This document shows positions 1,583-40,589 of a stretch of DNA of 44,769 bases, one piece after another (the first letter of the stretch is position 1; each line of letters starts with the position of its first letter). The notes beneath the pieces are model-generated. The model did no database searches and was not told the origin of the DNA. It was given only the letters and a program-made list of their open reading frames with translations. The stretch is from Candidatus Avelusimicrobium vaccinum (lineage in GTDB: Bacteria > Elusimicrobiota > Elusimicrobia > Elusimicrobiales > Elusimicrobiaceae): contig CADBIY010000011.1 of assembly GCA_902794895.1 (NCBI GenBank), forward strand, positions 1 through 44,769. The letters are read 5' to 3'. A program made the position numbers and the translations under genes.

Positions 1583-3211
1583 ATGACGACAATTAAACGA
1601 GTTTTATTTGTACTACTTACCCTGTTCCTACTGTTCGCTGGTAATATACCAGTTCGGGCGCGTGCTCTGTCGTCGAATGACCGGATTCGGATTCAATGTA
1701 CCCGCGAAAAAATGCGGATTTTAGCAGATATTTTTGAACCTAAAAAACCGCTGGCGGAAAAAGAATATCAGTTACCGGCGGAATGCTCCGGCGGTAAAGC
1801 ACGTACTTTGAAGGCACCCGGCTGGATGGAAGAAGAATTGGACCGGCTTGAAAAAAATAAAGTCCTCTATGTGAAAGATGAAGGAACCTATAGTGAGGCG
1901 GATTTATGGCGGCAGGCTTTTGCCAATCTCTATATGTATTTGGATCAAGTGGATAAATCTCTGGATCCCAATCAACCCATTGTTTTAAGTCAACTTTCCC
2001 GTGAATTTATGCGGTTGCGGTTAAGGCTTACTCTATCTATAGACCGTTTGAATAAAGAGTTTGTCCGCGGAAAAGAATTGGTGGTTATGAAAGATTCTTT
2101 GGGCGGACGGGCACGCAATATGTTGTCTACCATGGAATTGATCAATAGCGAAATTTTCAGTACGATTGAATCTTTTTCCAGCCCTATTTCCCAACGTGAA
2201 AACAAATACCGGCAAGCAGCTACTGCGGTTGTTATTTTAAGTAACCATTTATTCCGGGAATTTTTCATGAAGGAGCCCATTCCGGTTTATCCGCCGGATC
2301 CTAAAATTTATGTCACCACCCGTGCGGACCGGGCGTTTAGTTTATTTCTGTTGCTTTTGGGATCGGCCTTGGCCGGATTTGCTGTTTATTTACTCTTAGA
2401 TAATAAGCGGGAAAGTATTTTAAAGGTATTTGCAGATTATAAAGAAAAAAGTTCTGTATGGGCCGAAGATTTTAACCGCCAATTTGTTACTATTGACGTA
2501 AAATACATTGTGTTAGGCACTATTGCTGTATTTGCCTTGGCCGGGCTTGCTTTTGGCTTAATGGTAGGCGGTTTTGGCGGCGTATTTTTATTCTTACTCA
2601 TTTTATTCTTGGGTGCCGTGATCAGTGTAAGAATGCCAATGGCTGTGTTGGACTCTCTTAAGAAAAGCCGCGGTAAAAAAGTAAATGCCCAGTTGATGGA
2701 TGCCCTGATTTTGCTTTCCAACTCGTTACGTTCGGGGATGGATATTGTACAAGGTTTTGAAATGGTTTCCCGCGATTTGCGTCCGCCGATAGCGGATGAA
2801 TTTGGTTTGGTGGTGAAAAATTACCAATTAGGTACTCCGTTTGAAAAGGCCTTAGACGGGATGACTGACCGTGTAGAAAGCCGCATGCTTTCATACATTA
2901 TTAAAGCAATTATTATTCAACGCCAGGTAGGGGGAAACTTAACGGTTATTTTCTCCCGCTTGGTAGAAAATATCCGGGAAGAAAGTAAACTGGAAGAAAA
3001 ATTACAGGCTATGACCGCTCAACAAAAGATTCAATCTATTGTGGTTAGTATCATGCCGTTTGTAATGATGATTGTTATGTTTATTTTCAATCCTTCCCAA
3101 ATGATCTCCTTCTATACCAGCCCGGTAGGTATTTTTGTATTTGTATTCTGTGTAATTTGGATTGGGATCGGTATGAAAGTATTACAGAAAATGGGTGAGG
3201 TACGGGTCTAG
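1583..3211 (+). CDS. tadB: TadB-like inner-membrane platform protein with extra exported N-terminal domain
   Basis: The C-terminal half (about residues 365-540) is a type II secretion F (T2SSF) domain, the platform that couples the ATPase to pilus assembly. It contains the conserved stretch LLSNSLRSGMDIVQGFEMVS and ends with two membrane segments. Membrane segments are also seen near residues 251-272 and 307-350. What is unusual is the N-terminus: a signal-peptide-like segment (residues 5-27, ending VRARA) followed by about 220 residues of mostly helical, charged sequence that should lie outside the cytoplasm. Normal TadB is about 300 residues, so this protein is nearly double length. ATG 1583 follows a GAGAG sequence. 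It is 2 bases from tadC. T2SSF assignment is sure; the job of the N-terminal domain is unknown. Confidence 0.85.
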   Translation: MTTIKRVLFVLLTLFLLFAGNIPVRARALSSNDRIRIQCTREKMRILADIFEPKKPLAEKEYQLPAECSGGKARTLKAPGWMEEELDRLEKNKVLYVKDEGTYSEADLWRQAFANLYMYLDQVDKSLDPNQPIVLSQLSREFMRLRLRLTLSIDRLNKEFVRGKELVVMKDSLGGRARNMLSTMELINSEIFSTIESFSSPISQRENKYRQAATAVVILSNHLFREFFMKEPIPVYPPDPKIYVTTRADRAFSLFLLLLGSALAGFAVYLLLDNKRESILKVFADYKEKSSVWAEDFNRQFVTIDVKYIVLGTIAVFALAGLAFGLMVGGFGGVFLFLLILFLGAVISVRMPMAVLDSLKKSRGKKVNAQLMDALILLSNSLRSGMDIVQGFEMVSRDLRPPIADEFGLVVKNYQLGTPFEKALDGMTDRVESRMLSYIIKAIIIQRQVGGNLTVIFSRLVENIREESKLEEKLQAMTAQQKIQSIVVSIMPFVMMIVMFIFNPSQMISFYTSPVGIFVFVFCVIWIGIGMKVLQKMGEVRV

Positions 3212-11926: not shown

Positions 11927-13093
11927 ATGCGACGAAACTTTTGGATAGGAAAGTTAAAAGAACGGCGGGCGCAAATTTTGCTACCGTCGGTCCTTTTGGC
12001 GCCTATTTTTATTTTAGTGATCTATCTGTTGTTTGAAACGGCCAAAGTATCTATGACCAAAGTCCGCCACCAGTTCGCATTGGATAATGCCGCCTATTCG
12101 CAAGTATCTTCCGCCAGCACTTACTTAAACGCTGTAGCTATGGTAAACGGACCGTTGCCGTTTCGTGTCATGCGTTATTATGGAAGCACGGAAAAATTAC
12201 AATATAAAGCAAGTGCATCTGGGTTGCAAGATATTACTATTTTTGAATTATTTTATAAGAGCGGAGCCGTGCCTTCTTTGTTAGGGGATCAAGACGGGAC
12301 GAAGGCCAATTTGAGTCCGGCTCAGCAGTCCGTGGATTGGCAAGTCCATTATGTGTCTGCGCCCCCGAAAGGGGAACCGGCTAACGTAGTCCAGGGGCAA
12401 GAAAGCGGGGATCCCGCTATTATTTCCCGTAAAGACTGGGAAAAGGAATTGCCGACTCCTCCGGGGGATAACATCGTACGGTTACTCAGTTATCAATTAG
12501 TTCACAACTACCATTTCCCGGCGGGAAAACTGGGGATTCCGGTACTATCGCAATATTTAACTACCTATGTGTATGACGGTTCCATTTACAAATCGCAGGA
12601 TTATGTGTATAAAGAAGTTACAAAAAATGAAGTGATGTTCCGCGAAGGATATTGGCTAAACGTTAGCAATTGTAAAAAATCGGAGTGTGCCCGGGAGAGT
12701 GCGGCTAAACTCCGTCCGTTTTTAAACATAAGAACTAAACCGTTTGAAATTGAAAACATGGAAGTTTTCTTTTCGGACGGCGGCCCTAAACGGGGGGATA
12801 CGCACGGTGGAGCGATGGGCACCGTTTTGAAAGCGACGCAATTATTGAATGGTCAAAAGTTATTTCAATTTGCGTATTTGGATCCTTCCAGCCGTGGCCG
12901 TTTGCGGTCTTTACAACGGGGAGTTTTGCTGAAACAAAAATTCAACCTGCCCCGCAATCATTTTAATATTAATTTGGAACAAAAATATAAACCGTATGTG
13001 CGTACTAAAGTATCGTTGGCTTGCCCGCGCAACAGTAATAACTGCGTATGGCCGAACCCGTTACCTAAGTACAACGTAACATTAGATCCATGA
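11927..13093 (+). CDS. TadE/TadG-like pseudopilin with large exported domain
   Basis: A 388-residue protein with a basic N-terminus (MRRNFWIGKLKERRAQ) and one membrane helix (about residues 18-40, ILLPSVLLAPIFILVIYLL) followed by KVSMTKVRHQFALDNAAYSQ, the layout of TadG/TadE-type minor pilins. The rest is an extracytoplasmic domain with two cysteine pairs (NCKKSEC and CPRNSNNC). It starts 9 bases after the small pilin gene and overlaps the next gene by 4 bases (ATGA). RRAQILLP replaces the KGQAT motif of its two neighbours, so prepilin peptidase may not cut it. Family membership is judged by architecture and context. Confidence 0.65.
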   Translation: MRRNFWIGKLKERRAQILLPSVLLAPIFILVIYLLFETAKVSMTKVRHQFALDNAAYSQVSSASTYLNAVAMVNGPLPFRVMRYYGSTEKLQYKASASGLQDITIFELFYKSGAVPSLLGDQDGTKANLSPAQQSVDWQVHYVSAPPKGEPANVVQGQESGDPAIISRKDWEKELPTPPGDNIVRLLSYQLVHNYHFPAGKLGIPVLSQYLTTYVYDGSIYKSQDYVYKEVTKNEVMFREGYWLNVSNCKKSECARESAAKLRPFLNIRTKPFEIENMEVFFSDGGPKRGDTHGGAMGTVLKATQLLNGQKLFQFAYLDPSSRGRLRSLQRGVLLKQKFNLPRNHFNINLEQKYKPYVRTKVSLACPRNSNNCVWPNPLPKYNVTLDP

Positions 13094-13638
13094 GGCGATT
13101 AAACATTACTTTATTTCGTTCCCGTAAAGGGCAGGCTACCACGGAAGTAGTACTGTTGTTTCCGCTTTTTGTTATTTTTATTTTATTTATTATTAAAATT
13201 TTCGGGCTACTGGTATTAAGCCAAAAAATGGAAATTGCCGGATATTATGCGGCCCGGCGATATCAGTTGCAATCGCACGAAACGGATTATTATCACCGCA
13301 CCTGGGACCGCCGATTCCTCATGAAAGACATTCAAAAAAAAGTAGAAAATTATTTAGGTTTTGATAATCCGGGTATGAAGAAATTTCTCAGTTTGCGCCG
13401 GGTAAAGGTGGATATTAATCCCAGCGGTAGTTGGACGAAAGTGGTCATCACGGCTCAAACCAAACCGCCCATGATTCCCTTTTTGTGTAAATATAATAAA
13501 GACCAAGTCTGCGACCGGGACGATTACTGTTTAAAAGGCTATGCCTTTTTATGTGAAACAGGCGGGGAAGTGGTGGTCAATAAATATGTAGGTCACAACG
13601 AACGCCCGGCCCCGTATATGCGTCCGGAAGGGAAGTAG
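13090..13638 (+). CDS. TadE-like minor pilin
   Basis: A 182-residue protein with the prepilin motif RKGQATTEVVLLFPLFVIF, the same KGQAT-x-E signature as the 59-aa pilin encoded at 11738. One membrane helix covers about residues 20-42. The exported domain contains four cysteines in about 25 residues (CKYNKDQVCDRDDYCLKGYA and a later Cys), suggesting two disulfide bonds. TadE family proteins are pseudopilins processed by the Tad prepilin peptidase. The start overlaps the stop of the upstream gene (ATGA), so translation is coupled. It is the last gene before a terminator. Confidence 0.75.
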   Translation: MRRLNITLFRSRKGQATTEVVLLFPLFVIFILFIIKIFGLLVLSQKMEIAGYYAARRYQLQSHETDYYHRTWDRRFLMKDIQKKVENYLGFDNPGMKKFLSLRRVKVDINPSGSWTKVVITAQTKPPMIPFLCKYNKDQVCDRDDYCLKGYAFLCETGGEVVVNKYVGHNERPAPYMRPEGK

Positions 13639-14115: not shown

Positions 14116-15609
14116 ATGTTTAAATTAAAAACCGGGAATGTTATTCAAAAACTTAACAAAATGGATCGCAAACAGGCTTACACCTTGGCTGCGATAGTGG
14201 TGGTATGTTTTATTGCGCTGCTTTCACTTGCTTCCTTTTTAGGGGGTGCGGATGATACTTCTTTTGACGGAATGACCACCCGCGGGTATGATTTAGCCCA
14301 AATGCCGTTTGTGAATGACGAAGCCGAATCCTATCTGCTGGCCTCCAAGTATCCGGATATGCAAAACAACGGAAGTTCGCTGTTGTATTCGCCGGAAGAA
14401 AAAGAAGCCCGCCAGGAAGAAGATGCGGCAAAGGCCGAAGAGGATGAAGAAAGTACTTCCGGTTCTTCCGGCCGGGAAGATTCTTATTCCGGGAGAGGCT
14501 ATGGCGGCCGGGGGTATGGCTCGGGCCGCGTCGGATCCAGAGGATCCACCACCGTGGGGCAATTGGGCCAAGCCAGTGTCAAAGGCGCCGGCGGTAGCGG
14601 TATGACGGGCACTTTTGGGGCTCCGCGTGGGGACTTTTCGCCGTATAAAAGCCAGGATAAAGGAACGGAAATTGCGCCGCAGTTAAAAAATACAGATGCT
14701 AAAAAAGCGCTTTCCCAATTTGCGCAGACTAGCCGTGCCGCAGCCGGACTGAAAGACGGTAAAGGCGGCAACGCGAAAAAAGCGTTAATGGGGGGAAATA
14801 TTAAAGGGAGTGAAGCCTTTACCGATAAAGGGGTAGATTTAAGTAAATCGGGCGGACTCGCTCTGGATACCAACGCCCCGGTAACTTCGGCAGACCTTAG
14901 CAACTTGGAAGATAAATTAGATGATGCCGCCAAAGAAGCCAAAGAGGAAAACGACCAAATACAAGAAGATATGTGGGACCGCCTGCGGGAGCAATTATTT
15001 TCGGGGATGATCAATATGGTGCTTAATTTAGCAGGCCAGGCTGCTAGCAACTTATTAGATAAAGCCATGTACGGAAGTACAACCAAGGCTGCCAGTAAAG
15101 AAGTAATGCAACAGCAGTTAGGGGCAACTTATGATCCTAAGAATCCAGATGGAAATAAATTGGCCCAACTTCAACTGTGCGGTAGCACGAAAGGCTGTGA
15201 TGCTTACGACAAGTGGATGACAGGAGGAACCGTGGCGGATGCAGCTAAGAGTTATGGTGTAAGTAATAGAGATATGCGTCTTAATGTAAAACACAATGCC
15301 GGGCAATTTTCGTATGGTACAGGAACTTTGGCGGATGTGTATAGCGGAAAGAGCATGCAAGTGGGTTCCTCAAGTGGTAACGAAACTCCAGATTTAATGC
15401 GTGTTACGGAAGGAAAGAATTTTTCGCAGAACCCAGACCCAACTAATCAAAATTATTACCACTCACTAAGGAGAGATAACTCATCAAATGGGGGAGCATC
15501 CGCTTGGACACCGTGGGGAGGACAACAAAATAGTAACAATACAACCACGCAGACGGGAGAGTGCCCTCCGGGGACGACTTGGATGGCTCCTAGCGGAAGG
15601 TGTCAATAA
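14116..15609 (+). CDS. Membrane-anchored low-complexity protein, first gene of unknown operon
   Basis: A 497-residue protein I cannot assign to a family. A short basic N-terminus precedes one membrane helix (about residues 21-43). Outside it are an acidic stretch (EEKEARQEEDAAKAEEDEES, about 94-113), a Gly/Ser/Arg/Tyr-rich segment (118-170), an Ala/Lys/Gly-rich segment, a long charged helix (258-295) and an amphipathic/hydrophobic helix (296-312). The C-terminal part has two cysteine pairs: Cys355/Cys361, and Cys483/Cys496 in the last residues (ECPPGTTWMAPSGRC). ATG 14116 is chosen for the AAAGGGG ribosome site; an upstream in-frame ATG at 13966 lies before the promoter and is unlikely. Layout resembles the 1299-aa protein encoded at 20950. 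Base composition shifts from the low-complexity 5' part to a more AT-rich 3' part. Confidence 0.75.
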   Translation: MFKLKTGNVIQKLNKMDRKQAYTLAAIVVVCFIALLSLASFLGGADDTSFDGMTTRGYDLAQMPFVNDEAESYLLASKYPDMQNNGSSLLYSPEEKEARQEEDAAKAEEDEESTSGSSGREDSYSGRGYGGRGYGSGRVGSRGSTTVGQLGQASVKGAGGSGMTGTFGAPRGDFSPYKSQDKGTEIAPQLKNTDAKKALSQFAQTSRAAAGLKDGKGGNAKKALMGGNIKGSEAFTDKGVDLSKSGGLALDTNAPVTSADLSNLEDKLDDAAKEAKEENDQIQEDMWDRLREQLFSGMINMVLNLAGQAASNLLDKAMYGSTTKAASKEVMQQQLGATYDPKNPDGNKLAQLQLCGSTKGCDAYDKWMTGGTVADAAKSYGVSNRDMRLNVKHNAGQFSYGTGTLADVYSGKSMQVGSSSGNETPDLMRVTEGKNFSQNPDPTNQNYYHSLRRDNSSNGGASAWTPWGGQQNSNNTTTQTGECPPGTTWMAPSGRCQ

Positions 15610-15636: not shown

Positions 15637-17259
15637 ATGAATATCTTACAATGGCTCAAAGACTGCGGCGGCAAAATGGCCCTGTCTGCGTTGCAGACGG
15701 CAGGGCTTGCCACCGTGGTAGGGGTAGCCGGGCTCGGAGCGTACAGTTTTTTAAGTGCTCCGGCGGAAGACCCCGCTCTTTCTCCTTCGTCCTACAATCC
15801 GGGCGAAGTGGTGTATGTGGCCGGGAACCCCAATAGCGGCAATTACCAAAGCGGGGCGTATGTGTCCGCACAGGATAGCGGCTCCGCGCTGAACGAATCC
15901 TCGGTGCGTATTTCTGCCAAGACGCTCAACCGTCTAAATGAGGCAGACCGCCGGGATCAGGCTTTTGATGAGATGGAAGAACAACAATCCGCCAACTATT
16001 CGGCTCCGGTCGGTCCTGCTTATAAAGGCGGCGCCACGGAAGGGCTCGGCATGGGGGCCAACGTCGCTAACGAAATGGGCCTGAACGCGGAAGGCCTGGG
16101 TGGAAACGACCCGATGGCGGCGGTTTCCGGCATGATGGGCAATATGCAAGGGATTATGAACCAAGCCCAGCAACAAGCGCAAAACGCGGCCCAAGGCAAA
16201 CCGTCCGCGGACGAAAAAGGGAATGCTCCCGGATTAGCCGGTTTAAAATCTTCCGGGATGGCTACTGCCCCGAGTATAGGTGGGGCCGCTAATGGCGGGG
16301 GAAACGGATTTAATGCCTCTTTTACCGTACAAAACAGCGGTAAAAATAAAGGCGGTGCCGGGAATGCTAACATGCCGGATATGGGGAACGTAATGGCCTC
16401 GGCCCAACAGCAAATGTCTTCTGTGATGGACGGGATGCGCCGCATGCAGGCCAAAGCCTCTTTTGGAAAAGAGGAAGGCCTGGGCAGTAGCCGCGATGCG
16501 GACATCATGAATGTGAATAACACCAAAGGCGGCAAAGAGTTGAAACTGATGATGAAACAATCCGCCCAGGTGGCCAAAAACAAAAACCGTGCCGCTAACG
16601 ACGGAAGCGATCCGTTCTTGTCCGATACAAAAGTTTCCGGCGGCATGCAGATTTCCGCGGAAAATGTAACCACCGGGCAAGGTCAGGGCTCTAAAGATTT
16701 TGAAACGGATGCAAACTCAAGTTTACGCGGTATCCAATCCTGGGGCGACGATGCGCAATTGCATGAAGATAAAGTGAAAGCCGCGCGGGACCGTTTACGT
16801 CAAATGATGTGGACGGCTATTCCGACTGTTTTGGCATTATCCGTTGCAATTGCAGGGTTTCTTATGATCGCCCGATCTGGTTTTTGGGGATGGTGGGCTT
16901 ATGCTGTTGCTGCTGGATTGACTGTGTTGGCATTGGTTACTTGTGCGCTCTTAATTACTACGGCTGTGCAATATATTAAAATCAGGGGCTCCGGGTCCAG
17001 TTTATCCACGTGGGGTATTGTTACCGGAGGGGTGCTGATTGCCATTACAGGTGCGGCTTGGATTCCCGGATTTGCAATTGCAAAAAAGAAATTGCAGGAT
17101 ATGGCATTGAAAAAGTTGATTCCTCTATTTGCTACATTAGCGGGTCTTGGGGCGGTTGGAGGTGCCATGTCCGCTATACAAGGTGGAAATGCGGTTAAAG
17201 AAGGTAGTAGGGATATTAAAGAACTTAAAAACACCGAATTGGATTCTGATTCTAAATAA
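15637..17259 (+). CDS. Polytopic Gly/Ala-rich membrane protein, paralogue A
   Basis: A 540-residue protein. One hydrophobic helix lies at about 21-39 (TAGLATVVGVAGLGAYSFLS), followed by about 340 residues rich in Gly, Ala, Asn, Ser, Met and Gln, and then four hydrophobic segments near 392-412, 417-446, 458-481 and 494-514. It shares with the 511-aa protein encoded at 17551 the element GLGMGAN (137-143), a Lys/Asn-Arg-Ala-x-Asn-x-Gly-Ser block (KNRAANDGSDPFLSD), a SGGM-I motif, and the helix ending ARDRLRQMMW just before the membrane part. Strong ribosome site ACGGAGG. Not recognised; the Gly/Ala-rich polytopic layout vaguely recalls TrbL/VirB6-like secretion channel proteins but no shared motif was seen. 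Confidence 0.75.
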   Translation: MNILQWLKDCGGKMALSALQTAGLATVVGVAGLGAYSFLSAPAEDPALSPSSYNPGEVVYVAGNPNSGNYQSGAYVSAQDSGSALNESSVRISAKTLNRLNEADRRDQAFDEMEEQQSANYSAPVGPAYKGGATEGLGMGANVANEMGLNAEGLGGNDPMAAVSGMMGNMQGIMNQAQQQAQNAAQGKPSADEKGNAPGLAGLKSSGMATAPSIGGAANGGGNGFNASFTVQNSGKNKGGAGNANMPDMGNVMASAQQQMSSVMDGMRRMQAKASFGKEEGLGSSRDADIMNVNNTKGGKELKLMMKQSAQVAKNKNRAANDGSDPFLSDTKVSGGMQISAENVTTGQGQGSKDFETDANSSLRGIQSWGDDAQLHEDKVKAARDRLRQMMWTAIPTVLALSVAIAGFLMIARSGFWGWWAYAVAAGLTVLALVTCALLITTAVQYIKIRGSGSSLSTWGIVTGGVLIAITGAAWIPGFAIAKKKLQDMALKKLIPLFATLAGLGAVGGAMSAIQGGNAVKEGSRDIKELKNTELDSDSK

Positions 17260-17270
17260 AGGGGCATACT

Positions 17271-17540
17271 ATGGCACAAAAACAAGAATTTGTACCGGGA
17301 CCAAAGTTAATTTGGCTGTTCCGTATCGTGTTATTGGTGCTCTTTGTGGTGTGGGTGGCGGGTGCTATTCACTTGCACCAAGTTGTTAAGGCCGACGAAG
17401 CCGCCATTGCCCAACGCGAACAGGTGCTCCACCAACAGGAAGAACGGGCGCGCCGGGCGGCCGCTTACGAAAGGAGCCGTTTGCAAGAGCAAGTAGACCG
17501 TAACACCAGTAAAAACGTAGTAGACGGTTTTAAACGTTAG
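17271..17540 (+). CDS. Small membrane protein with coiled-coil tail
   Basis: An 89-residue protein with one membrane helix (about residues 13-34, LIWLFRIVLLVLFVVWVAGA) followed by a charged helical tail of about 50 residues with heptad-like spacing (REQVLHQQEERARRAAAYER). Ribosome site AAGGGG. It sits 11 bases after paralogue A and 10 bases before paralogue B, which suggests that it works together with both, for example as a stoichiometric linker. No family recognised. Shape is similar to small bitopic division or secretion accessory proteins such as FtsB/L, but no specific similarity is claimed. Confidence 0.65.
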   Translation: MAQKQEFVPGPKLIWLFRIVLLVLFVVWVAGAIHLHQVVKADEAAIAQREQVLHQQEERARRAAAYERSRLQEQVDRNTSKNVVDGFKR

Positions 17541-17550
17541 GAGAATAGTT

Positions 17551-19086
17551 ATGAAATGGTTATCCATCTTAAAAAATAAAGCGGGTAAATTTACCCTCGG
17601 TATTCCGCAAATGGTCGGGATTGCCGGAGCCGGTATGTTGCTTACCTACGGAGCGTTTCAAGCCGATAACGCCATGGACCAAAAAGGTCCGGTTCGCTCC
17701 TTAACTTCCATTTCCGATACGCAAAATTATAGCGGAATGGACCGGACTTCAACCGGGCAATTAACTTCCATGAAAATTAAGGACGGCCTGAACCAGGTTG
17801 CCACCCGGGAAGAACGGGAACGTATGGAAGGCGGACGTTCTTCAAACGATTTCGGTTTAAGCGGCGTGGACGGGATAGAAGGGCGGATGTCTGCCGGCTC
17901 TTACGGTCCGGCGGCCCCCACCGGTGCCAGTGACGGGCTGGGAATGGGTGCGAATGCGGCCGTAGAAACCGGAAATACTTATATTGCCGCTTCCCGGGCT
18001 TCCGCTGGATCTGGTGTAGCCGGATTGAATGCCGGTGGAAATGGAAACGGCGGGACTTCCGGAGCAAACGGCGCTCAAGCCTCGTCCGGCTCTTCCTTGG
18101 GTTCTGCCTCCATAGCGCGTGCCTCGGGGAGTGCTTTTAATGCCGCGGCGGGTGCTGTTGCCGGTGGCAAAATGGGGGGAAGTGCCTCTAACGGACGTTC
18201 CGGGGCCACCCATGGCGGTGCTTCCGGGGACGGATACCAATTTTCGGGGGCTATGCCGGGCAGCAGCAGTGCGGTGGCTTCCTTGGCGGATGGCGGCCGT
18301 GCTCATGGATCGGCGGCATCCGGTTTTATGGCAAGCAGCCGCCGCGGTTCAGCGGGGCGTGCCACCCGTTCTAACAGTCAAGGGGATTTGAAAGATATTT
18401 CCAAACGTTCTGCTGATGCAGCCAGAAACCAACACCGGGCCACAAACGAAGGCAGCCGCGCTTTTTTGGCTTCTTCCCAAAATTCCGGCGGTATGACCAT
18501 TGAAGGCGGTGTGGAAACGGAATCCACCGGTTCAGCCGATTTTGAAGCCCCGGCTACCAATTCCCTCAAAGGGTTAGGCGATTGGCAAAAGAAGGCGGAA
18601 GATAAAGATAAGGAACAACAAAAGGCCCGCGAACGCTTACAGTGGATGATGATTGCTATGATTGCCGGAACTTTCATTGCCATGCGACTGGGATTCTCCC
18701 TGATTCAGAAAGGTAAAAAAGCGGGTTTATTTGGATGGAGTTTTATCGCTTGGGGTTGGACAGTATTAGGTATTGGGATGGCCTATGCCGCTGTGGTAAT
18801 GGGATTTGCAATAGACTATATGACAAAATTCAATGGTCTCTTTATGCCGATTACGGCACTCGTATTAGGTGCAGCCGCCGTTACCGCGTTGGCTATTACC
18901 GGTGCTAAAGCCATGGCTGCAATTGGTCAATCAGCAGCAGAACTTGAAAAAAATAAATTCGCTGCATTTACCAAAGATGCATTTAAACAAGTTGCTATGA
19001 CGGGCGCTACGACGGGTGCCTCAATGGTCATGGAGGCGGGTAACAACGCGGATAGCAAGGCGATGGAAAATCCGCACAATAAATAA
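17551..19086 (+). CDS. Polytopic Gly/Ser/Ala-rich membrane protein, paralogue B
   Basis: A 511-residue paralogue of the protein encoded at 15637. It has an N-terminal hydrophobic helix (about 19-36), about 325 residues very rich in Gly, Ser and Ala, and three hydrophobic segments (about 364-384, 393-421, 430-456). Shared landmarks are GLGMGAN (129-135), HRATNEGSRAFLASSQNSGG versus KNRAANDGSDPFLSD in paralogue A, NSLKGLGDW versus SSLRGIQSW, and the helix ARERLQWMM before the membrane part. The C-terminus differs, with about 50 soluble residues. Ribosome site AGGAG. Long antisense frames in this gene are a by-product of its base composition. Function unknown; the duplication suggests a hetero-oligomeric membrane assembly. 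Confidence 0.75.
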   Translation: MKWLSILKNKAGKFTLGIPQMVGIAGAGMLLTYGAFQADNAMDQKGPVRSLTSISDTQNYSGMDRTSTGQLTSMKIKDGLNQVATREERERMEGGRSSNDFGLSGVDGIEGRMSAGSYGPAAPTGASDGLGMGANAAVETGNTYIAASRASAGSGVAGLNAGGNGNGGTSGANGAQASSGSSLGSASIARASGSAFNAAAGAVAGGKMGGSASNGRSGATHGGASGDGYQFSGAMPGSSSAVASLADGGRAHGSAASGFMASSRRGSAGRATRSNSQGDLKDISKRSADAARNQHRATNEGSRAFLASSQNSGGMTIEGGVETESTGSADFEAPATNSLKGLGDWQKKAEDKDKEQQKARERLQWMMIAMIAGTFIAMRLGFSLIQKGKKAGLFGWSFIAWGWTVLGIGMAYAAVVMGFAIDYMTKFNGLFMPITALVLGAAAVTALAITGAKAMAAIGQSAAELEKNKFAAFTKDAFKQVAMTGATTGASMVMEAGNNADSKAMENPHNK

Positions 19087-19121: not shown

Positions 19122-19144
19122 CTTTATAATTGTTAAGGAATTTT

Positions 19145-20740
19145 ATGCCAGAATCACGAGAACAAGAACAAGGACAAGTTTCCAAGGAATCGCAAGCAGA
19201 GAATGCTACGGCTCCCTTGGATATGGCTAAGCAAAAAATGAAAGATATTTTGCGCTCAAAGCGGGCGTGGGGTATGTTAGCCGTGATTTTGTTCTTGCTG
19301 GCGGGGGGGACGTTGGTTCCCGTGGGGCGGATTCCACTCCTGCGCAATTTAGTCTATGCCATGGGATATACGCCGGAAGAAACCTTGCGCTTATCCCTTT
19401 TTCAAGCCTTGTTTTCCTGGAATGAACACCAAAAAATTTTAAGAGGGGAAATTCCGGACCCGAATGAACTGGATGTATTTGGCTCGGCTGAGGCTGCCAC
19501 CCGCGCCGCTGAACTGGCCGCCCGGAAAGAGGGACGTTTGAAAGATGCGTTAATTAATATGGGGGCTGTGAATGCATCCCTGCGCCGCCAGGGACGCGGA
19601 GCCGAACAAGTGGCCGGATCTTCCGGCGGAATTGATGCAGACCGCGAAGACGGCGCGCAAGTCGTTCTCAATAATTCAAATGCTTCTACAAATACCGAAT
19701 CTAACGCCGCCCAAGTAAGTGATGTCTATTTTGGTGCGGATGTCAATGGAGTCCGCCGTGATAAACGAGACGGTTATGACTCGGTAAACTCTTTAAAGAA
19801 AGCCGCTTCTCCCATTCGGGGAGCCAGCGGGTCTTCCAATACTGATTGGGTGGTCCAAATGGCCGATAAGGCCACTAGGCAAGATGCACAACTTAGCGGT
19901 ATTAATGATAATTTAGAGGCTAAGGGATTATCGGCCGGGCTGGGCCAGGTGGAAAAAGTGGGCAAAGATAAAGCGCGGCGCGATTTATATTGGGCTTGGT
20001 TAACCGGACGTGCGGCCCGGCGGACGCCACAGGTAATACTCAAAAAAACGCTTGCCTCTTCCAGTTTTGACGGGGCCGAATTGCCGAAAACAGTCTTTAT
20101 GTCTTCGGGTTTTTCCGGCATTGGGGTCAATCCGGATGATGTCATTGCCGATATGAGCAGTGTCAAAAAGTATTTGGAATTGGATGAAAAATGTAAAGAA
20201 CTCTTGGAAACAGAATTTAATGATGACTATGAAAACCAACTCAAAGAAATGCGTAAAGAAATTGCGGAGATAGGGGACTCCTTCCCGAAAAATTGTGAGG
20301 ATAGTAAGAATACCACTTTTACTCAACATCTTACCTCTGTTAAAAATACCTGTAATACCATTCGGGCAAAATATCAAAAATTGAATAACAAGTGTTCGTC
20401 GAATCCTGTTTCTAACAGTGCGGACCAGTGTTATGAACGCGAAAAATTAACGAACCTAAGAAATAATTTTGAAAGTTATTGTGATAATCTGTACGAAGAA
20501 GCAAGAAAATCATGTGCTGATGCTGCAGATTTTAATGCCTGTTATGATCCTAAGAAAGCAGAAATTGACGGGAAAAAAGTACAAGATAGCGATGTTGACG
20601 ATAAAGATATCGATGTACAGAATGAAGTGAACCAAGGATATTTCAAGGATGGCGACCCGGAGCAAGGACTTAACAACAGTTATTTCCCGACGGCAGATTT
20701 GGGCAATAGTTTGTGGGTAGATGAAAATGCTATTGATTAA
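19145..20740 (+). CDS. Membrane-anchored protein with cysteine-spaced helical C-terminus
   Basis: A 531-residue unassigned protein. About 40 cytoplasmic residues precede one membrane helix (about 41-58, AWGMLAVILFLLAGGTLVPV). The outer part has Ala/Arg-rich helices (AEAATRAAELAARKEGRLKD), a Ser/Asn/Gly linker, and from about residue 345 a helical, charged domain with eight cysteines at rather even spacing (EKCKELL, KNCEDS, KNTCNT, NKCSS, DQCYE, SYCDN, KSCAD, NACYD). An even number fits disulfide bonds formed outside the cytoplasm. The end is acidic (DVDDKDIDVQNEVNQ). ATG 19145 is preferred over TTG 19130 because AAGGAA lies between them. The cysteine-rich tail makes it a likely client of an exported disulfide system. 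Confidence 0.72.
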   Translation: MPESREQEQGQVSKESQAENATAPLDMAKQKMKDILRSKRAWGMLAVILFLLAGGTLVPVGRIPLLRNLVYAMGYTPEETLRLSLFQALFSWNEHQKILRGEIPDPNELDVFGSAEAATRAAELAARKEGRLKDALINMGAVNASLRRQGRGAEQVAGSSGGIDADREDGAQVVLNNSNASTNTESNAAQVSDVYFGADVNGVRRDKRDGYDSVNSLKKAASPIRGASGSSNTDWVVQMADKATRQDAQLSGINDNLEAKGLSAGLGQVEKVGKDKARRDLYWAWLTGRAARRTPQVILKKTLASSSFDGAELPKTVFMSSGFSGIGVNPDDVIADMSSVKKYLELDEKCKELLETEFNDDYENQLKEMRKEIAEIGDSFPKNCEDSKNTTFTQHLTSVKNTCNTIRAKYQKLNNKCSSNPVSNSADQCYEREKLTNLRNNFESYCDNLYEEARKSCADAADFNACYDPKKAEIDGKKVQDSDVDDKDIDVQNEVNQGYFKDGDPEQGLNNSYFPTADLGNSLWVDENAID

Positions 20741-20949: not shown

Positions 20950-23900
20950 ATGCCAGAGGAAAAAGAAGAAAAGAAAGCAACCCCTTTTTTTGTACCTGCT
21001 AATAAAGAGGGCAAGAAAAAGGAAAGCTTTACCTTTAGCGATAAGATTAAGAACAGCAAACCGGCTCCTTCTAAATCTTTTGCTAATCGTCCTTCCTCTA
21101 AAATCGGGAGCGACGGCAAACCGCGTCAAACGCTTTTTGAGCGCACGAAACGGGATGCGCCGTTCTTTATTGCGGCCTTAGTGGCCCTTCTTTTACTGCC
21201 GTTCTTGTATAAATATAGCGGCAACGTAAACGAAGAACCCACGATGGTTACTCCCGGTTATGAGGATTCCGCCTTTAACCCGGAACGTTCCGGGTTTGAT
21301 GGTTTTGCTGCTGACCCGGATGGGCAAATCGCCCAATTGGCCGGACGGGATTCTATGTCCTTAATTCTTCCGTATGGTGCTAAAAGCACGGACGAAGAAG
21401 AAACGGACGAAGAATATGATTCCCGCAGCGCTTATATGGGGGAAGGGTCTTCTGCTTCGCACAGTTTAGATGAACAAGACGAAGAAGAAAATACCACCAA
21501 TATTTATAAATACCGTAAAAAAGCCCCGGCGGCAACCCGGGCGGCGTTTAAACGTGCTGCTACGAAAATCGGCCGTTTAGGCAATGCCGGACGCGCAGGC
21601 GCAAACGGTAGTAAATTAGGCATTGGAATGTGGGGCGGCGGCATGAAAACCGCGGCTAACAAAGTGCGTGGCAAAGCACCGGAAAGTGCTCCTAAGCCCG
21701 TATCCTTGCAACCGTTACAAGCGGCCGGGAAACCTTCCCGCTCGTACTTCGGGCAAGGGCCTGCACGTGAAGCGGCCCGCTCTAAAGATGCCATGTCCAA
21801 AGGAAACGCTATGCAGGCTTTGATGGACGCTCAAATGAAACCTGTGGAACCCGGCAAAATCGGCGGGATCCTGGGCGGAGATTTTGGCGGCCCGGGCGGC
21901 GGTAATGGCGACCTGAAACGGGAATTTGCCTTCAGTGGTAAAGAACCGTGGTGGTGGGACATGATGAAACAGCGATCCATGATGGAATGGCAGAAAGAGT
22001 TTGAATACAAATGGGGCTGGATCAACTGGGCCACCGATTTAGCCAAAAACATCTTAGGCGGCGTGTTGAATTGTTTAATTACCGGTAATGATAACGGCGA
22101 TATGGGCCATATGTTTGGTGCCGTAGCAGGCTCCGGTAAAAAAGACGAATGCTGTGGTATGGATGAAGATAAGTTTAAGGGAGCCGCTCCTGGAGTAGAA
22201 TTTAGCGAAAAGGCTTGTAAAGGTTGGGTGACGGCGCATCCGGAAGTAAAGTGTTCTACGAAGTGGGTAAGCGGTCATAAAGCCTCTGCTAATTTAGGAT
22301 TCTTTGGTTCCCGCATGGACTGTTTAACCAACGGTTTGTGGGCTGGTCGCCAAGCGAAAAGAGCCGGATATGGTGTTGTAACTGAAGCGGACGACTGCAC
22401 CACCTTCTATCAAACCGGGCGTTATAAAGCGGAAGTAGGCGGTCCGAAACGGACTATGTTCCACTATGTGGTAGGTATTCCGTTTGATAAAGTGGAAGCC
22501 TTTTTCAAGGAGAATAATGCTGATAAACGCAGAGAAATGTTACAAATTGCCTATTTTGGCAAAGGTGGCAGCTTTGCGGTAGACAGCACCGAAGCCCAAC
22601 AGACAATCAATAAAACGAAATTTGTACCGTTGTTTATTGAAACGGTTGCCATTAAAAATAGAAAATTAAATAAAAAGACTGCCGGTAAGAATGGATATGA
22701 ATTCTCCGAAATAGAGGGGGGTTCCGAAGCATTCCTTACTGCTGGCAAAGAGTCCAAAATTGGCATGCCTTATACGGAGTTCTTAAAACGTTTATCTGAC
22801 GGCGGGGTTGTGGTTACTACAGAACCTGGTGCAACTCCCATCATGTCGGCCAAGGGCAGTAAAGAAGGCAAAAGTTGGAGCACGGGAGCGCGTTGTGCCT
22901 ATCCGATGGCGTTTATCTCTTGCCGCAATAATGCATTATCGGTCAACGGACAACCACAAGAAGGTGTGATTGTAGGTACTCCGGCGGCATTTATTAAGTT
23001 GCCGAATTTAACGGGCAAAGTCGGGGCTGCACGTCCTTCCCAAGCAGAACTTGATAAGTTAACGCCGCACTTCTCGGTAATGTATGAAATTCAAGGTGCT
23101 GACCAAAATGCGGCCACGGGGTTATCCACCTCTACCAATTCTGCTACGGGGCGCATGTACTTTGCCAATGTACATCCCTCTAATGCAGGGTATGAGGATC
23201 CGAGCATTACCAATGATCATGGTATTACCTTTCAACCGAATGATGGTACTTATACGGTCAAGGTGGCAGGGGATGCCCTAAGAGAATTAAAACAATTACG
23301 GGTAGGCCCGGACGGTGAAAACCGCGCGGTGATTACGTGGACGGTCCGCCAAAACTATGATCCGGATGAACCCTGGGCGATTGCACACGCGATTGCGGAT
23401 GGTCATGGCGGCGGGAACACAGTTTCCGGCGACAAAGGCGCTGGTGGTTCCGGTGCGAAGGCCCCCGGCCAAATTGTCAGCCAAGCAACTTGTGTGTACT
23501 TTGATGACGATACGGAGCCAGCACCACTGGATCCTCACTCTTGCAGCGATGGAGAAACTCGGACGAATAGCGAAGGATGTGAAGAAGAGTGTAAAAACAA
23601 TGTTTGGGTAAAAAAAGATCCCGACTGTCCTAATCGTCGTATTCCGGATCCGGTTCCTCCTTTGCCAATTAACTCAAATCCGGGACCAAATCCGGTACCA
23701 AATGCCGAACAAAAGGTGGAGTTTTATAGAACCTTTAAATCTATGACGGAAGATCCATTAAATGATAAAGACTCTGGGCGTCCGCTGTTGACTCGCAATA
23801 CAGAGCCGAAGAAATGGAACACCTGTCAAATTGATAATCTATCGGCAGTATTGTTGGATTATGATCAAGATAGCGAAACCCAAGCTTATATGAAAGCGGC

Positions 23901-24849
23901 CACAGATGCCTATACGAAGGCGAAGGCTGACGGAAAAGCGACCAAAGCAATGAAGCCTTATGGGGTAAGTCTTGAGCAAGGCGGGCAAGTGTCCGACAAA
24001 CATCCGACATTAGCCCAAGTGGTAGATGCCATGCGTATTAGCCAGTCCTTGGGAATAACGAATGTTCCGAAAAACACTGTGTGTGCGATGGCTAGAACGA
24101 TTGGTATTGCTTCTAAAGATCCGCATTCGCCCAACATGAGTAATATGTTTGGTGCATTTGCCGCATATATCGATTACGATTCTTCGTTCTTCCCAACAAT
24201 GCGCGTGACAGATACCTCTAGTGGGGTAGGAATTGATCGGCGTTTTCATGGATGTTATGACCGAAGACGCTCTAATCAACAAGTCTTGGCTCAGGTAGGT
24301 CAACGAATGCAACAAGACCGTGTAAATCAGGCTGGGCAAGGCTGTGGAGAAACTCGTAATGGAGCGGCAGGAAAGAATGAATGTTCCGCTTTCCACTATG
24401 GTCACTACAACTGGAACGAAAAAACGATCGGCGATTTGGCTCCGGGGAGCGGCTGTGTGGATCGCTCAAAGAAAAAATGCTTGCAACGAGATCGTATCCC
24501 TTATGAGCAGATGATAGGTCTAACTCGTCGAAATATCTGGGGTAAATTTCCGTTACGAGAGTTATCTACAAAAAACGGAGTGAAAATTTTTGTACGGGAA
24601 GAAGGCCCAGTGACTAGCACTCAAACGCGTAATGGGACGATAGATTCCTATAACCGTAAGAACTATCATAAGGCATACAATAAAATATTCCACGTGAGCG
24701 GAGAGAGTTGCGGTTATGGTTCCTCCGACATGATGCCCGTAGATAAGGCTTTGGAATATATTGATAACTTGTGTCAAAATGGCATTACGAACAAGCCAAG
24801 TAATGGTGCTCGAATTCCCTGTGAACACCACTACTTAGCAGACTTCTAG
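20950..24849 (+). CDS. Giant membrane-anchored modular protein (1299 aa) of unknown function
   Basis: About 68 basic cytoplasmic residues precede one membrane helix (about 70-87, APFFIAALVALLLLPFLY). The outer part starts with an acidic stretch (STDEEETDEEYDSR, about 155-170), a basic Ala/Gly-rich segment, and a Trp-rich helical block (EPWWWDMMKQRSMMEWQKEF, then KWGWINWATDL). Then come a large domain with several cysteine pairs (starting DECCGMDEDKF), a Gly-rich linker, a small cysteine cluster (SCSDGETRTNSEGCEEEC), a Pro/Asn-rich linker (PDPVPPLPINSNPGPNPVPN) and a C-terminal domain of about 390 residues with about ten cysteines. Strong AGGAGG ribosome site. TM, acidic stretch, Gly-rich linker, amphipathic block and Cys-rich end follow the same order as the 497-aa protein at 14116. 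Likely an extracellular structural or adhesive protein; no family recognised. Confidence 0.75.
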   Translation: MPEEKEEKKATPFFVPANKEGKKKESFTFSDKIKNSKPAPSKSFANRPSSKIGSDGKPRQTLFERTKRDAPFFIAALVALLLLPFLYKYSGNVNEEPTMVTPGYEDSAFNPERSGFDGFAADPDGQIAQLAGRDSMSLILPYGAKSTDEEETDEEYDSRSAYMGEGSSASHSLDEQDEEENTTNIYKYRKKAPAATRAAFKRAATKIGRLGNAGRAGANGSKLGIGMWGGGMKTAANKVRGKAPESAPKPVSLQPLQAAGKPSRSYFGQGPAREAARSKDAMSKGNAMQALMDAQMKPVEPGKIGGILGGDFGGPGGGNGDLKREFAFSGKEPWWWDMMKQRSMMEWQKEFEYKWGWINWATDLAKNILGGVLNCLITGNDNGDMGHMFGAVAGSGKKDECCGMDEDKFKGAAPGVEFSEKACKGWVTAHPEVKCSTKWVSGHKASANLGFFGSRMDCLTNGLWAGRQAKRAGYGVVTEADDCTTFYQTGRYKAEVGGPKRTMFHYVVGIPFDKVEAFFKENNADKRREMLQIAYFGKGGSFAVDSTEAQQTINKTKFVPLFIETVAIKNRKLNKKTAGKNGYEFSEIEGGSEAFLTAGKESKIGMPYTEFLKRLSDGGVVVTTEPGATPIMSAKGSKEGKSWSTGARCAYPMAFISCRNNALSVNGQPQEGVIVGTPAAFIKLPNLTGKVGAARPSQAELDKLTPHFSVMYEIQGADQNAATGLSTSTNSATGRMYFANVHPSNAGYEDPSITNDHGITFQPNDGTYTVKVAGDALRELKQLRVGPDGENRAVITWTVRQNYDPDEPWAIAHAIADGHGGGNTVSGDKGAGGSGAKAPGQIVSQATCVYFDDDTEPAPLDPHSCSDGETRTNSEGCEEECKNNVWVKKDPDCPNRRIPDPVPPLPINSNPGPNPVPNAEQKVEFYRTFKSMTEDPLNDKDSGRPLLTRNTEPKKWNTCQIDNLSAVLLDYDQDSETQAYMKAATDAYTKAKADGKATKAMKPYGVSLEQGGQVSDKHPTLAQVVDAMRISQSLGITNVPKNTVCAMARTIGIASKDPHSPNMSNMFGAFAAYIDYDSSFFPTMRVTDTSSGVGIDRRFHGCYDRRRSNQQVLAQVGQRMQQDRVNQAGQGCGETRNGAAGKNECSAFHYGHYNWNEKTIGDLAPGSGCVDRSKKKCLQRDRIPYEQMIGLTRRNIWGKFPLRELSTKNGVKIFVREEGPVTSTQTRNGTIDSYNRKNYHKAYNKIFHVSGESCGYGSSDMMPVDKALEYIDNLCQNGITNKPSNGARIPCEHHYLADF

Positions 24850-24873: not shown

Positions 24874-24908
24874 ACCAAGGCACTTTATTAAGGTGCCTTG
24901 GTTTTTTT
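24874..24908 (+). terminator. Rho-independent terminator ending the unknown operon
   Basis: ACCAAGGCAC (24874-24883) pairs perfectly with GTGCCTTGGT (24893-24902), followed by a run of seven T ending at 24908. It cleanly separates the block from the TPR-rsmA genes. Confidence 0.92.
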
Positions 24909-24933
24909 AGTTCCTTTTTGTTTCTGTTTTTTC

Positions 24934-24939
24934 TATTAT
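24934..24939 (+). promoter_or_regulatory. -10 box six bases before the TPR gene start
   Basis: TATTAT at 24934-24939 ends six bases before ATG 24946, and no Shine-Dalgarno sequence lies in between. Transcription would start at or next to the ATG, giving a leaderless mRNA. No clear -35 box is visible. Confidence 0.45.
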
Positions 24940-24945
24940 ATATCT

Positions 24946-26643
24946 ATGAGGAAGAATGGATTTTTTCTATTTATTTTGACAGTAGGTTTTCTTTGCACTA
25001 CTGTGCCCGTGCAAGCGGGTTTTCCGTTTTCCTTCCGTAAACCTACTATCAAGACCGATTATTCCCAAACGGTGTGGGACCAAATCATGCAGGAACAAGC
25101 CATGGGCGATATGCGCCGCGGCATGTTGGAAATGAGCCAGTCCCGCTATAACGAAGCCACTAATAGTTTTGCGAAAGCCGTTGTTAAAAATGCTAAAGAT
25201 CCGATGGGGTATTTACTTTTTGGGGCGGCGTTGTATTGGTCAGGTAAAGTGGATGATGCAATTAGCGAATATCACGAGGCCTTGCGGCTGGATTCCAAAA
25301 ATCCGATGGCGTACCAACTGTTGGGCATTGCTTCCGGCTGGAAAGGAAAATTTCAAGAAGCGCAAGATTATTTTTTAAAAGCCAATGAACTGGATCCCAA
25401 CAAAGCCGATACACATATGAATTTAGGGTCTACTTATGCGGTGCAAAATAATTTGGATAAAGCATTAGAACATTTCCGCCGCTCTACCGAACTTGCCCCG
25501 CGTGAGCCGCTGTACCATTACCAACTCGGTACGCTGTACGAAGCCTTAGGGCGGGATGAACAAGCGGAAGAATCCTTCAAAAAGGCCTTGCATTATTTTT
25601 CAGCATATGAAGATGCCCAACTTGCGTTGGCCGCATTGTATGAAAGTTTGGGCCGCAGCGAGGATGCCTTAAAATATTATAAAAAAGCAGTCAAAACCAA
25701 GCCGGGGGATTATGTGGCGCGTTTACGGTATGCCTTCTTATTACTTCGGCATGGGCAAGAAACCAAAGCGCGCGAAATAATAGAAGAGGCCTTTTCGATC
25801 TCGCGTTTTAAGGAAGACGGGCTTGCGTTAAATGCGGTGTATAGCGCCAGCGGAACCGCTGTTACCACCTTTGAAAATCAAATCCGCGCTTTTGGGGAGA
25901 ATTTGTCAAAAGTGGCTCCAAGCAAAGCGATCGAGGTGGAAGTTTCCCTGGAATTTGAGCCCGAACAACCGTTGCAAACAGATACTGCTACTTCTCCCAA
26001 AAATACATTTGAGCGTGCTTATGAACAACTGCGCGGTGCCTCTTCTGCGGGTAGTGAGATGCCCAAACGTTTGTTTAAACGGAAGTTTACCTTACCGGCT
26101 ACCGATCAAAAAACACGCGAAGAACAAATTAAAGCATTCGGGGAAGGATTGCGCCAAGCGGTTGCTTCTGCCGGAGAAAAGGAACGCATCCATTTATCCT
26201 TACAGGGCCGCACAGCAGATTATAACTCGGCCTATGCGGTAGGGCAGAATCGGGCCGCACCTCCCAAGGCGGTCTATGATCCGCGAATCGTGGGGAATGA
26301 TATGGGCCTGTGGGTGATGGGGAAAAATTGGCTTAAATTTGTAGAAGATGCCGTGGAAGATTTGCAAGAATACCGGCCGCATTGCCCTACCGGAACCACG
26401 TGCGATTTATTGGCCGGGCTTGCCGAATTAGCGCGGGGTAATAGTGCGCAAGCGCAGTCGGCTTTTCAAGCGGTATTAGTCAAAAATCCGCAAGAGATGT
26501 TGGGCTTGCTCGGAGCAGGTACTGCGGCTGTTATTTCCGGCGAAGATGAAACAGCGTTGCAATACTATCGGCGCGCACTTACCGTAGCGCCTGGCAATAA
26601 AACGGCGGCGCGTAATATCGCGGTACTGACGGACGACGAATAA
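24946..26643 (+). CDS. Exported TPR-repeat protein
   Basis: A 565-residue protein with a signal peptide (MRKNGFFLFILTVGFLCTTV, ending PVQA|GF) and many tetratricopeptide repeats between about residues 55 and 270 (SRYNEATNSFAKAVVKNAKD, ALYWSGKVDDAISEYHEALR, GKFQEAQDYFLKANELDPNK, NNLDKALEHFRRSTELAPRE, GRDEQAEESFKKAL, GRSEDALKYYKKAVKTKPGD). A middle region lacks repeats and two more occur near the C-terminus (GNSAQAQSAFQAVLVKNPQE, EDETALQYYRRALTVAPGNK). The ATG at 24946 is chosen for the signal peptide. It lies right after the terminator of the unknown operon and is followed without a gap by rsmA. TPR arrays bind proteins; the partner is unknown, a cell-envelope assembly role is possible. Confidence 0.85.
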   Translation: MRKNGFFLFILTVGFLCTTVPVQAGFPFSFRKPTIKTDYSQTVWDQIMQEQAMGDMRRGMLEMSQSRYNEATNSFAKAVVKNAKDPMGYLLFGAALYWSGKVDDAISEYHEALRLDSKNPMAYQLLGIASGWKGKFQEAQDYFLKANELDPNKADTHMNLGSTYAVQNNLDKALEHFRRSTELAPREPLYHYQLGTLYEALGRDEQAEESFKKALHYFSAYEDAQLALAALYESLGRSEDALKYYKKAVKTKPGDYVARLRYAFLLLRHGQETKAREIIEEAFSISRFKEDGLALNAVYSASGTAVTTFENQIRAFGENLSKVAPSKAIEVEVSLEFEPEQPLQTDTATSPKNTFERAYEQLRGASSAGSEMPKRLFKRKFTLPATDQKTREEQIKAFGEGLRQAVASAGEKERIHLSLQGRTADYNSAYAVGQNRAAPPKAVYDPRIVGNDMGLWVMGKNWLKFVEDAVEDLQEYRPHCPTGTTCDLLAGLAELARGNSAQAQSAFQAVLVKNPQEMLGLLGAGTAAVISGEDETALQYYRRALTVAPGNKTAARNIAVLTDDE

Positions 26644-31757: not shown

Positions 31758-31786
31758 TTGACTGTCTTTTTTTTTTTTGATACACT
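31758..31786 (+). promoter_or_regulatory. Promoter of the 191-aa pilin gene
   Basis: TTGACT (31758-31763) and TACACT (31781-31786) with a 17-base spacer that includes a run of T. AAGGAGAG precedes ATG 31822. Confidence 0.65.
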
Positions 31787-31821
31787 GCTTGTATTATGAT
31801 ACGAAGATACAAGGAGAGAGT

Positions 31822-40063: not shown

Positions 40064-40091
40064 ATTAGTATCTTTGGAGGAAGGAGGTCTT

Positions 40092-40589
40092 ATGCAGAAA
40101 GGTTTTACTTTAATTGAATTATTAGTGGTAGTGCTTATTATTGGCATCTTAGCGGCGGTTGCTTTGCCCCAATACGAAAAGGCTGTGATGAAATCTCGTA
40201 CGACGGAAATTGTTACATTTGCTTCCAATGTAACACGGGGTATTGAGATTGCTATGCTGGAGTCCGGAGGGGTTCCTGCGGGATTGAAATTAGAGGATTT
40301 AACGCTTGATTATAGTAATTCAGTAACTTGTTCCAGTTTAAATTGTACCGCAAAAAACGGCAAGTGGAGTGCCATATTGCAGTCATATGCGCCAGTGATG
40401 GAGGTATGGCAATTACTTATTACACCGTCTGCTGACACCTTTGGGACTGCAACGATGGGGGTTGCCTATATGCCGGGCGGAGTGATGACCTTCCAATGTG
40501 AATATGGTAAAAATTCTTCTAAGGGGAAGACCTTTTGCGATGCGGTGCACTCACTGGATAGCCGGTATACGTTAGTACAGGGAAACTAA
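40092..40589 (+). CDS. Type IV pilin-like protein
   Basis: A 165-residue prepilin with a very short leader (MQKG) and the cleavage site G|FTLIELLVVVLIIGILAAV, followed by VALPQYEKAVMKSRTTEIVT. The globular domain has cysteines in TCSSLNCTAKNGKW and FQCEYGK...FCDAV. The N-terminal helix is nearly identical to that of the other pilin (31822), while the globular parts differ, the pattern of a family of minor or variable pilins spread over the genome. AAGGAGGT precedes the ATG. Ends before a bidirectional terminator. Confidence 0.9.
   Translation: MQKGFTLIELLVVVLIIGILAAVALPQYEKAVMKSRTTEIVTFASNVTRGIEIAMLESGGVPAGLKLEDLTLDYSNSVTCSSLNCTAKNGKWSAILQSYAPVMEVWQLLITPSADTFGTATMGVAYMPGGVMTFQCEYGKNSSKGKTFCDAVHSLDSRYTLVQGN

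What the first reader, a model, noticed from the sequence alone, without database searches (positions are those of the whole stretch)
15637..19086. Paralogous pair of polytopic proteins flanking a small bitopic protein
The 540-aa and 511-aa products share GLGMGAN, an R-A-x-N-x-G-S block, SGGM-I, an S-L-x-G-x-x-x-W element and an A-R-x-R-L-x-x-M-M helix just before the C-terminal membrane segments, in the same order, although the Gly-rich middle is free to vary. The 89-aa gene between them keeps 10-11 base gaps. This points to duplication around, or insertion of, a shared partner and to a hetero-oligomer.
Basis: partly seen in the sequence, partly recalled or inferred. Interest (0 to 1): 0.7.

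Follow-up and report, generated by a model that had tools for sequence, protein, structure and literature searches.

The report
Duplicated membrane-protein pair in pilus operon
Two related membrane proteins with a small partner between them form part of an undescribed gene cassette that sits beside the adhesive-pilus (Tad) genes in a group of gut and environmental bacteria, and that has repeatedly duplicated the same gene, which suggests a membrane complex built from unlike copies.

Summary
A (540 aa) and B (511 aa) are true paralogues: blastp E 8e-21, still about 8e-18 with low complexity masked, profile-profile E 3.8e-49. With the 89-aa protein s they belong to a cassette Z-A-s-B-C-D behind tadE of a Tad (type IVc pilus) operon in an Elusimicrobiota genome. 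In the genus, 64 of 66 genomes have the family; A and B are two deep clades.

The small protein also has two orthologous groups, sA (behind A) and sB (behind B): 36 genomes show sA only, 17 sB only, 5 both, and these states are three clades with two changes. So an [A-s] unit was duplicated, and a different s was then lost in each branch. Elsewhere in the phylum there are 1-4 polytopic copies, duplicated independently. 169 of 181 genomes with the family also have TadE.

Most likely A, B and s are an inner-membrane hetero-complex of an accessory Tad module. Physical contact and function are inferred, not shown.

The parts
148..1569 (+). tadA/cpaF ATPase, cut by the start of the window
   Evidence: PF00437 207.7 bits; in a relative (L111) the full gene is 767 aa with an N-terminal CbiA/ParA-like domain
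1583..3211 (+). tadB (T2SSF)
   Evidence: PF00482 62.8 bits
3214..4104 (+). tadC (T2SSF)
   Evidence: PF00482 56.7 bits
7016..7948 (+). DsbA-like thioredoxin-fold protein
   Evidence: PF01323 17.9 bits, E 0.0028, below the curated cut-off
11927..13093 (+). TadF/TadG-like pilin-like protein
   Evidence: weak TadE hit, E 0.22; conserved next to tadE
13090..13638 (+). tadE-like minor pilin
   Evidence: PF07811 22.3 bits, E 1.5e-4, just under the cut-off 22.9
14116..15609 (+). Z: signal-anchored Gly/Ser-rich protein, first gene of the cassette
   Evidence: one N-terminal hydrophobic segment 18-47; orthologues before A in relatives
15637..17259 (+). A: polytopic paralogue 1
   Evidence: AF2 confident only at about 354-500: long helix 354-412, then helices 418-450, 455-473, 483-501
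17271..17540 (+). s (sA type): 89-aa bitopic coiled-coil protein
17551..19086 (+). B: polytopic paralogue 2
19130..20740 (+). C: signal-anchored protein, conserved after B
   Evidence: g1C against f2C E 1.3e-7
20950..24849 (+). D: about 1300-aa signal-anchored protein with invariant cysteines
   Evidence: g1D against f2D E 3.4e-10; invariant Cys columns
24898..26643 (+). TPR protein following the cassette, possibly part of it
   Evidence: Pfam TPR; follows D in most relatives

Best explanation
A, B and s are subunits of one inner-membrane complex that belongs to an accessory module (Z-A-s-B-C-D) of the Tad (type IVc) pilus machine in class Elusimicrobia. Shown: A and B are paralogues; the ancestral arrangement in the genus was most simply two units, A-sA and B-sB; one small gene was lost in each main branch; the module lies behind tadE in 51 of 53 genus genomes where both are on one contig; the family occurs almost only in genomes with TadE. 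Inferred: each polytopic protein has its N-terminus inside, one membrane helix, a long flexible Gly/Ser-rich periplasmic loop with short conserved docking motifs, then a long helix and 3-4 membrane helices. A and B form a hetero-oligomer, s caps or bridges them with its periplasmic coiled coil (either sA or sB suffices), and the loops tie the platform to Z, C and the large, probably disulphide-bonded D, which would be assembled, anchored or displayed with the pilus.
For: Paralogy. Both paralogues kept: every genus genome with a readable A-B-C interval has both. Tally by hand over the 64 genus genomes with the family: 36 sA only (one, G009, ends before C), 17 sB only (including G023), 5 both, 1 partly readable (G033), 5 not readable or not fetched. 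sA and sB: two clades at 100/100, 63 rows; homologous by profile, E 1.6e-9, score 53.5 against a maximum of 40.5 in 100 column shuffles. Three states = three clades, two changes, 55 genomes. Linkage: of 62 genus genomes with a TadE hit, 53 have tadE and A on one contig, 51 of them within about 3 kb (hand tally). In 6 of 10 class-level loci examined a tad gene lies upstream on the same strand. Co-occurrence: 169 of 181 family-positive genomes have TadE, 131 of 340 have neither. Independent tandem duplications elsewhere. The operon holds a DsbA-like gene and D has invariant cysteines.
Against: The module is not needed for a Tad operon: 28 of 197 TadE-positive genomes gave no family hit (some may be missed), among them a single-contig 1.64-Mb genome of the same family with an intact tad operon and no cassette. 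It is unlinked from tad in the f2 loci examined and in two genus genomes, G030 and G081. Co-occurrence is not corrected for phylogeny. Residual distance correlation is no higher for A-B (0.55) than for A with the TadF-like protein (0.76), and is 0.01 for B-s. No fold or family match supports any function. f2 genomes have two copies but no s.
Confidence: 0.5

Rival explanations
1. The cassette is an independent envelope complex (for export or surface anchoring of D-like proteins) that only shares regulation or neighbourhood with Tad.
For: Stand-alone Z-A-B-C-D operons in f2; separate Z-A-s-C loci in g15 genomes G109, G110 and G120; a tad operon without the cassette in G102; two genus genomes with the cassette far from tadE.
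Against: 169 of 181 positive genomes also have TadE; docking behind tadE/tadF in distant families of the class argues for an old tie.
Confidence: 0.3
2. The cassette encodes a pilus tip or adhesin set comparable to the exchangeable KilLMN tips of the Myxococcus Tad-like Kil pilus, with D as the variable tip and A/B/s as its assembly partners.
For: Position behind tadE/tadF, large Cys-rich D, fast divergence (mean identity 38-49% for Z, A, s, B, C, D against 64-92% for TadE, TadF-like, HK, RR-HK, LuxR-RR and DsbA-like, up to 12 genomes); the tip concept was read in passages of PMC12075869.
Against: Those tips are pilins with a prepilin leader; none of Z, A, B, C, D shows a G-xxxx-E leader by eye, and A/B are polytopic. 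D has no significant fold match.
Confidence: 0.12
3. Similarity of A and B reflects only shared composition (Gly/Ser/Ala-rich) and hydrophobic segments, not descent.
For: Parts of both proteins are low-complexity (96 of 540 and 123 of 511 residues masked); the membrane C-termini alone do not align.
Against: E 1e-16 to 8e-18 after masking; a non-Gly-rich block alone gives 2.9e-18; shuffles reach only 27.7 bits.
Confidence: 0.01

Closest known systems
Tad / type IVc pilus system (TadA, TadB, TadC, TadE, RcpC, secretin)
   Same: The operon holds TadA, TadB, TadC and TadE-like genes; relatives show RcpC/CpaB and a secretin upstream. Tad systems in Elusimicrobia are noted in one passage of PMC6668835.
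   Different: Z, A, s, B, C and D match no Pfam or NCBIfam model above its cut-off, and I know of no such genes in described Tad loci (recalled).
Kil (Tad-like) apparatus of Myxococcus xanthus with exchangeable tips and an associated T3SS*
   Same: A Tad machine with additional lineage-specific parts encoded in separable clusters (passages of PMC12075869).
   Different: Kil tips are pilin-fold proteins; A/B are polytopic membrane proteins and s is a bitopic coiled coil.
Rz-like spanins (small bitopic coiled-coil proteins)
   Same: s has the same plan: N-terminal membrane helix then a charged coiled coil (PHROG hits E 0.00036 to 0.0097).
   Different: Generic resemblance; I looked for no lysis genes beside it, and the host operon is Tad.

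Membership tests
Tad (type IVc) pilus operon, for the surrounding locus | TadA/CpaF-type ATPase | tested here: met
   PF00437 207.7 bits
Tad (type IVc) pilus operon, for the surrounding locus | Two adjacent T2SSF platform proteins (TadB, TadC) | tested here: met
   PF00482 62.8 and 56.7 bits
Tad (type IVc) pilus operon, for the surrounding locus | TadE-type minor pilin | tested here: inconclusive
   Window gene 22.3 bits against a cut-off of 22.9; a second TadE-like gene in relative L112 scores 42.3
Tad (type IVc) pilus operon, for the surrounding locus | RcpC/CpaB and secretin | tested here: met
   Not in the window, which begins inside tadA; met in relatives L111 and L112
Tad (type IVc) pilus operon, for the surrounding locus | Flp-type major pilin | not tested
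   Not looked for
Known Tad proteins, for A, B and s themselves | Match to a described Tad family model | tested here: not met
   No Pfam or NCBIfam hit above cut-off for A, s or B
One paralogous family A/B | Significant similarity after masking low complexity | tested here: met
One paralogous family A/B | Shared fold | not tested
   Only A was folded (mean pLDDT 60.6)
Prepilin / Kil-tip-like minor pilins, for A and B | Prepilin leader (G-xxxx-E type) before the hydrophobic helix | tested here: not met
   Read by eye in the translations; no predictor was run
VirB6/TrbL or ExbB/TolQ/MotA type membrane proteins | Family profile or fold match | tested here: inconclusive
   No such Pfam hit; PDB fold search of A gave no match at E <= 0.001 and only generic helical bundles

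The most novel reading that the evidence does not exclude
Z-(A/B-s)n-C-D is an undescribed envelope-spanning machine of class Elusimicrobia with its own membrane platform built from unlike copies of one polytopic family, able to work docked to the Tad pilus or apart from it, much as a second apparatus works with the Tad-like Kil pilus in Myxococcus.
Probability: 0.25. Interest if true: 0.75.

Novelty: new variant of a known kind. Interest (0 to 1): 0.5.

Why it matters
Tad machines are usually seen as a fixed core plus variable tips. Here a lineage carries a conserved extra membrane module in which one gene family duplicated again and again in tandem, while its small partner was lost from one place or the other. 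That gives a natural experiment on which subunits of a membrane complex are exchangeable, in a phylum whose surface machinery is little studied (my assessment).

Tried and rejected
Tried without result: Pfam, NCBIfam and PHROG scans of A, s, B and neighbours; PDB sequence search with the A/B profile (4 hits, best E 0.1); PDB fold search of A (only generic helical bundles) and of D from about residue 321 on (none at E <= 0.001; model mean pLDDT 62.5). An absent fold match does not exclude a known fold. VirB6/TrbL-like, ExbB/MotA-like and spanin readings were considered and not supported.

Rejected: one shared ancient A/B duplication for the genus and f2. Holding g1A with f2A, or with f2B, together costs 148 log-likelihood units each. 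Rejected: insertion of s between existing genes as the origin of the trio, given the sA/sB orthologue groups. Weak point: the sA and sB of the both-type genomes, compared only with each other, are not detectably similar. The longer small proteins of genus g15 show no profile similarity to s, so they are positional analogues only.

Inconclusive: distance-correlation test (the script crashed before its permutation step, so there are no p-values; 55 genome pairs usable).

My s detector missed sA in G089 and sB in G090; both were read by translating the gaps and are not in the s tree. It also flagged short ORFs outside the A-C interval, which I ignored. Left out of the tree although they carry the family: G005, G022, G033 and G087 (A or B split or on two contigs) and the unreadable G006, G017, G036, G074 and G080. 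Loci L034, L035, L037 and L040 are the same contigs as others and were left out of the tree. Co-occurrence and linkage tallies use handles and coordinates that I copied by hand.

Literature: searches (listings read); passages read only of PMC12075869 and PMC6668835. None of the listings named this cassette; most subscription papers are not held.

Full report
The observation. A and B align at E 8e-21 over 296 residues. After masking of low-complexity sequence the match stays at about 1e-16 to 8e-18; a block that is not Gly-rich (A 286-392, B 256-366) gives 2.9e-18 on its own; the best of 200 locally shuffled versions of A reached 27.7 bits against 82. Profiles of 33 A and 35 B orthologues match at E 3.8e-49 over 423 columns. 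The final membrane segments alone do not align by blastp.

What it lies in. The window is one whole contig of a 1.45-Mb genome. A search with B in a collection of named genomes found 8 loci, 5 titled Elusimicrobiales or Elusimicrobium and 3 'uncultured bacterium'. Upstream are tadA, tadB, tadC, a TPR protein, a HAMP protein, a DsbA-like protein, two-component genes, a TadF-like and a TadE-like gene. In two relatives the operon has RcpC/CpaB and a short secretin before tadA, and in the one tested TadA is fused to an N-terminal ParA/MinD-like domain. Behind tadE come Z, A, s, B, C, D and a TPR protein; this order is kept in relatives.

Within the genus. 64 of 66 genomes carry the A/B family. Of the two misses, G002 has a contig that ends about 440 bases after its tadE match and G095 is 75% complete. 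In a tree of 73 proteins A and B form two clades. Small proteins with one membrane helix and a coiled coil sit behind A, behind B, or behind both. By hand, for the 64 genomes: 36 have sA only (in one, G009, the contig ends before C), 17 have sB only (G023 among them, with A-B-s-B'-s'-C), 5 have both (G073, G089, G094, G100 on one contig; G005 across a contig break inside B), G033 shows sB with A on another contig, and 5 could not be read or were not fetched. sA and sB are separate clades at 100/100 over 63 rows and are homologous by profile comparison: E 1.6e-9, above all 100 column shuffles. On an A+B tree of 55 genomes the three states are three clades, with only two changes. The simplest history is one duplication of a unit [polytopic gene + small gene], then loss of sB in the window's branch and of sA in the other. 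Against this, the sA and sB of the both-type genomes do not resemble each other when compared alone.

Outside the genus. In genus g15 of the same family, 17 of 18 genomes (G106-G123) have the family: in the loci read, a single A with a longer small protein behind it, either inside the Tad operon (G118, G121, G111) or apart (G109, G110), or A-s-A'-s' (G120). In family f2, 52 genomes gave a hit and 47 of them two or more matches; in the f2 loci read, the set Z-A-B-C-D stands alone, without s, and f2A resembles f2B at E 2.9e-33. C and D of the genus match C and D of f2 (E 1.3e-7 and 3.4e-10). In other families of the class up to four polytopic copies stand in a row, and in 6 of 10 such loci tad genes lie upstream on the same strand. 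In a 58-row tree the genus A and B are each other's nearest kin (100/99), f2A groups with the g14 pair and f2B apart. Forcing g1A with f2A or with f2B costs 148 log-likelihood units each. So the pair in the window arose independently of the f2 pair; the g14 pair, the third f2 copy in G137 and the extra B-s of G023 are further tandem duplications. The root of this tree is not known.

Tie to Tad. Over 340 genomes of the phylum, 181 have the family by three profiles, 197 have a TadE hit, 169 both, 12 the family alone, 28 TadE alone, 131 neither. This is not corrected for kinship. Of 53 genus genomes with tadE and A on one contig, 51 have them within about 3 kb; G030 and G081 do not (hand tally). 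A single-contig 1,643,562-base genome of the same family (I recall that Elusimicrobium minutum has this size) has the tad operon up to tadE and no cassette. The cassette is thus separable but keeps company with Tad.

How it most likely works. The N-termini carry positive charge before the first helix, so by the positive-inside rule the long Gly/Ser-rich part lies in the periplasm; the model of A is confident only for a long helix 354-412 and the helices after it. I take A and B to form a mixed ring or cluster in the inner membrane, with s as a bitopic coiled-coil partner that either paralogue can serve, and with loops that hold Z, C and the cysteine-rich D (invariant cysteines) at the Tad machine. 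The duplication, loss and linkage steps rest on calls; contact, topology and function are inferred. The cassette proteins diverge faster (mean identity 38-49%) than the tad-operon proteins measured (64-92%; up to 12 genomes). A distance-correlation test did not single out A-B or B-s.

Novelty. No library used here has a model for A, B or s above its cut-off (weak generic spanin hits for s), and the papers listed by five searches did not name the cassette; PMC6668835 mentions Tad systems in Elusimicrobia in one passage. I rate it a new variant of a known kind: a Tad locus with an undescribed accessory membrane module.

Noticed in passing
L111:6213-8513, L112:6513-8876: TadA is about 770-790 aa; in L111 an N-terminal ParA/MinD-like (CbiA) domain stands before the ATPase, apparently a TadZ-TadA fusion.
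   Followed up: partly
L109:12506-19155: In G049 (f2) a protein of at least 2216 aa lies a little downstream of tadE, where the genus has the cassette.
   Followed up: no
L088, L102, L103: In genus g15 the Z gene itself is duplicated in tandem (Z-Z'-A-s).
   Followed up: no
L092:15396-16463, L096:2484-3623: A deoxyhypusine-synthase-family gene lies beside the stand-alone cassette in two f2 genomes.
   Followed up: no
window 31777-32397 and 40074-40589: Two lone genes with a type IV pilin N-terminus (FTLIELLVVVLIIGILA) lie outside any pilus operon in the window.
   Followed up: no
L039 2084-3576 and L143: The B gene is split into two frames (325 + 171 aa) in this genome; intact copies exist in relatives.
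   Followed up: no
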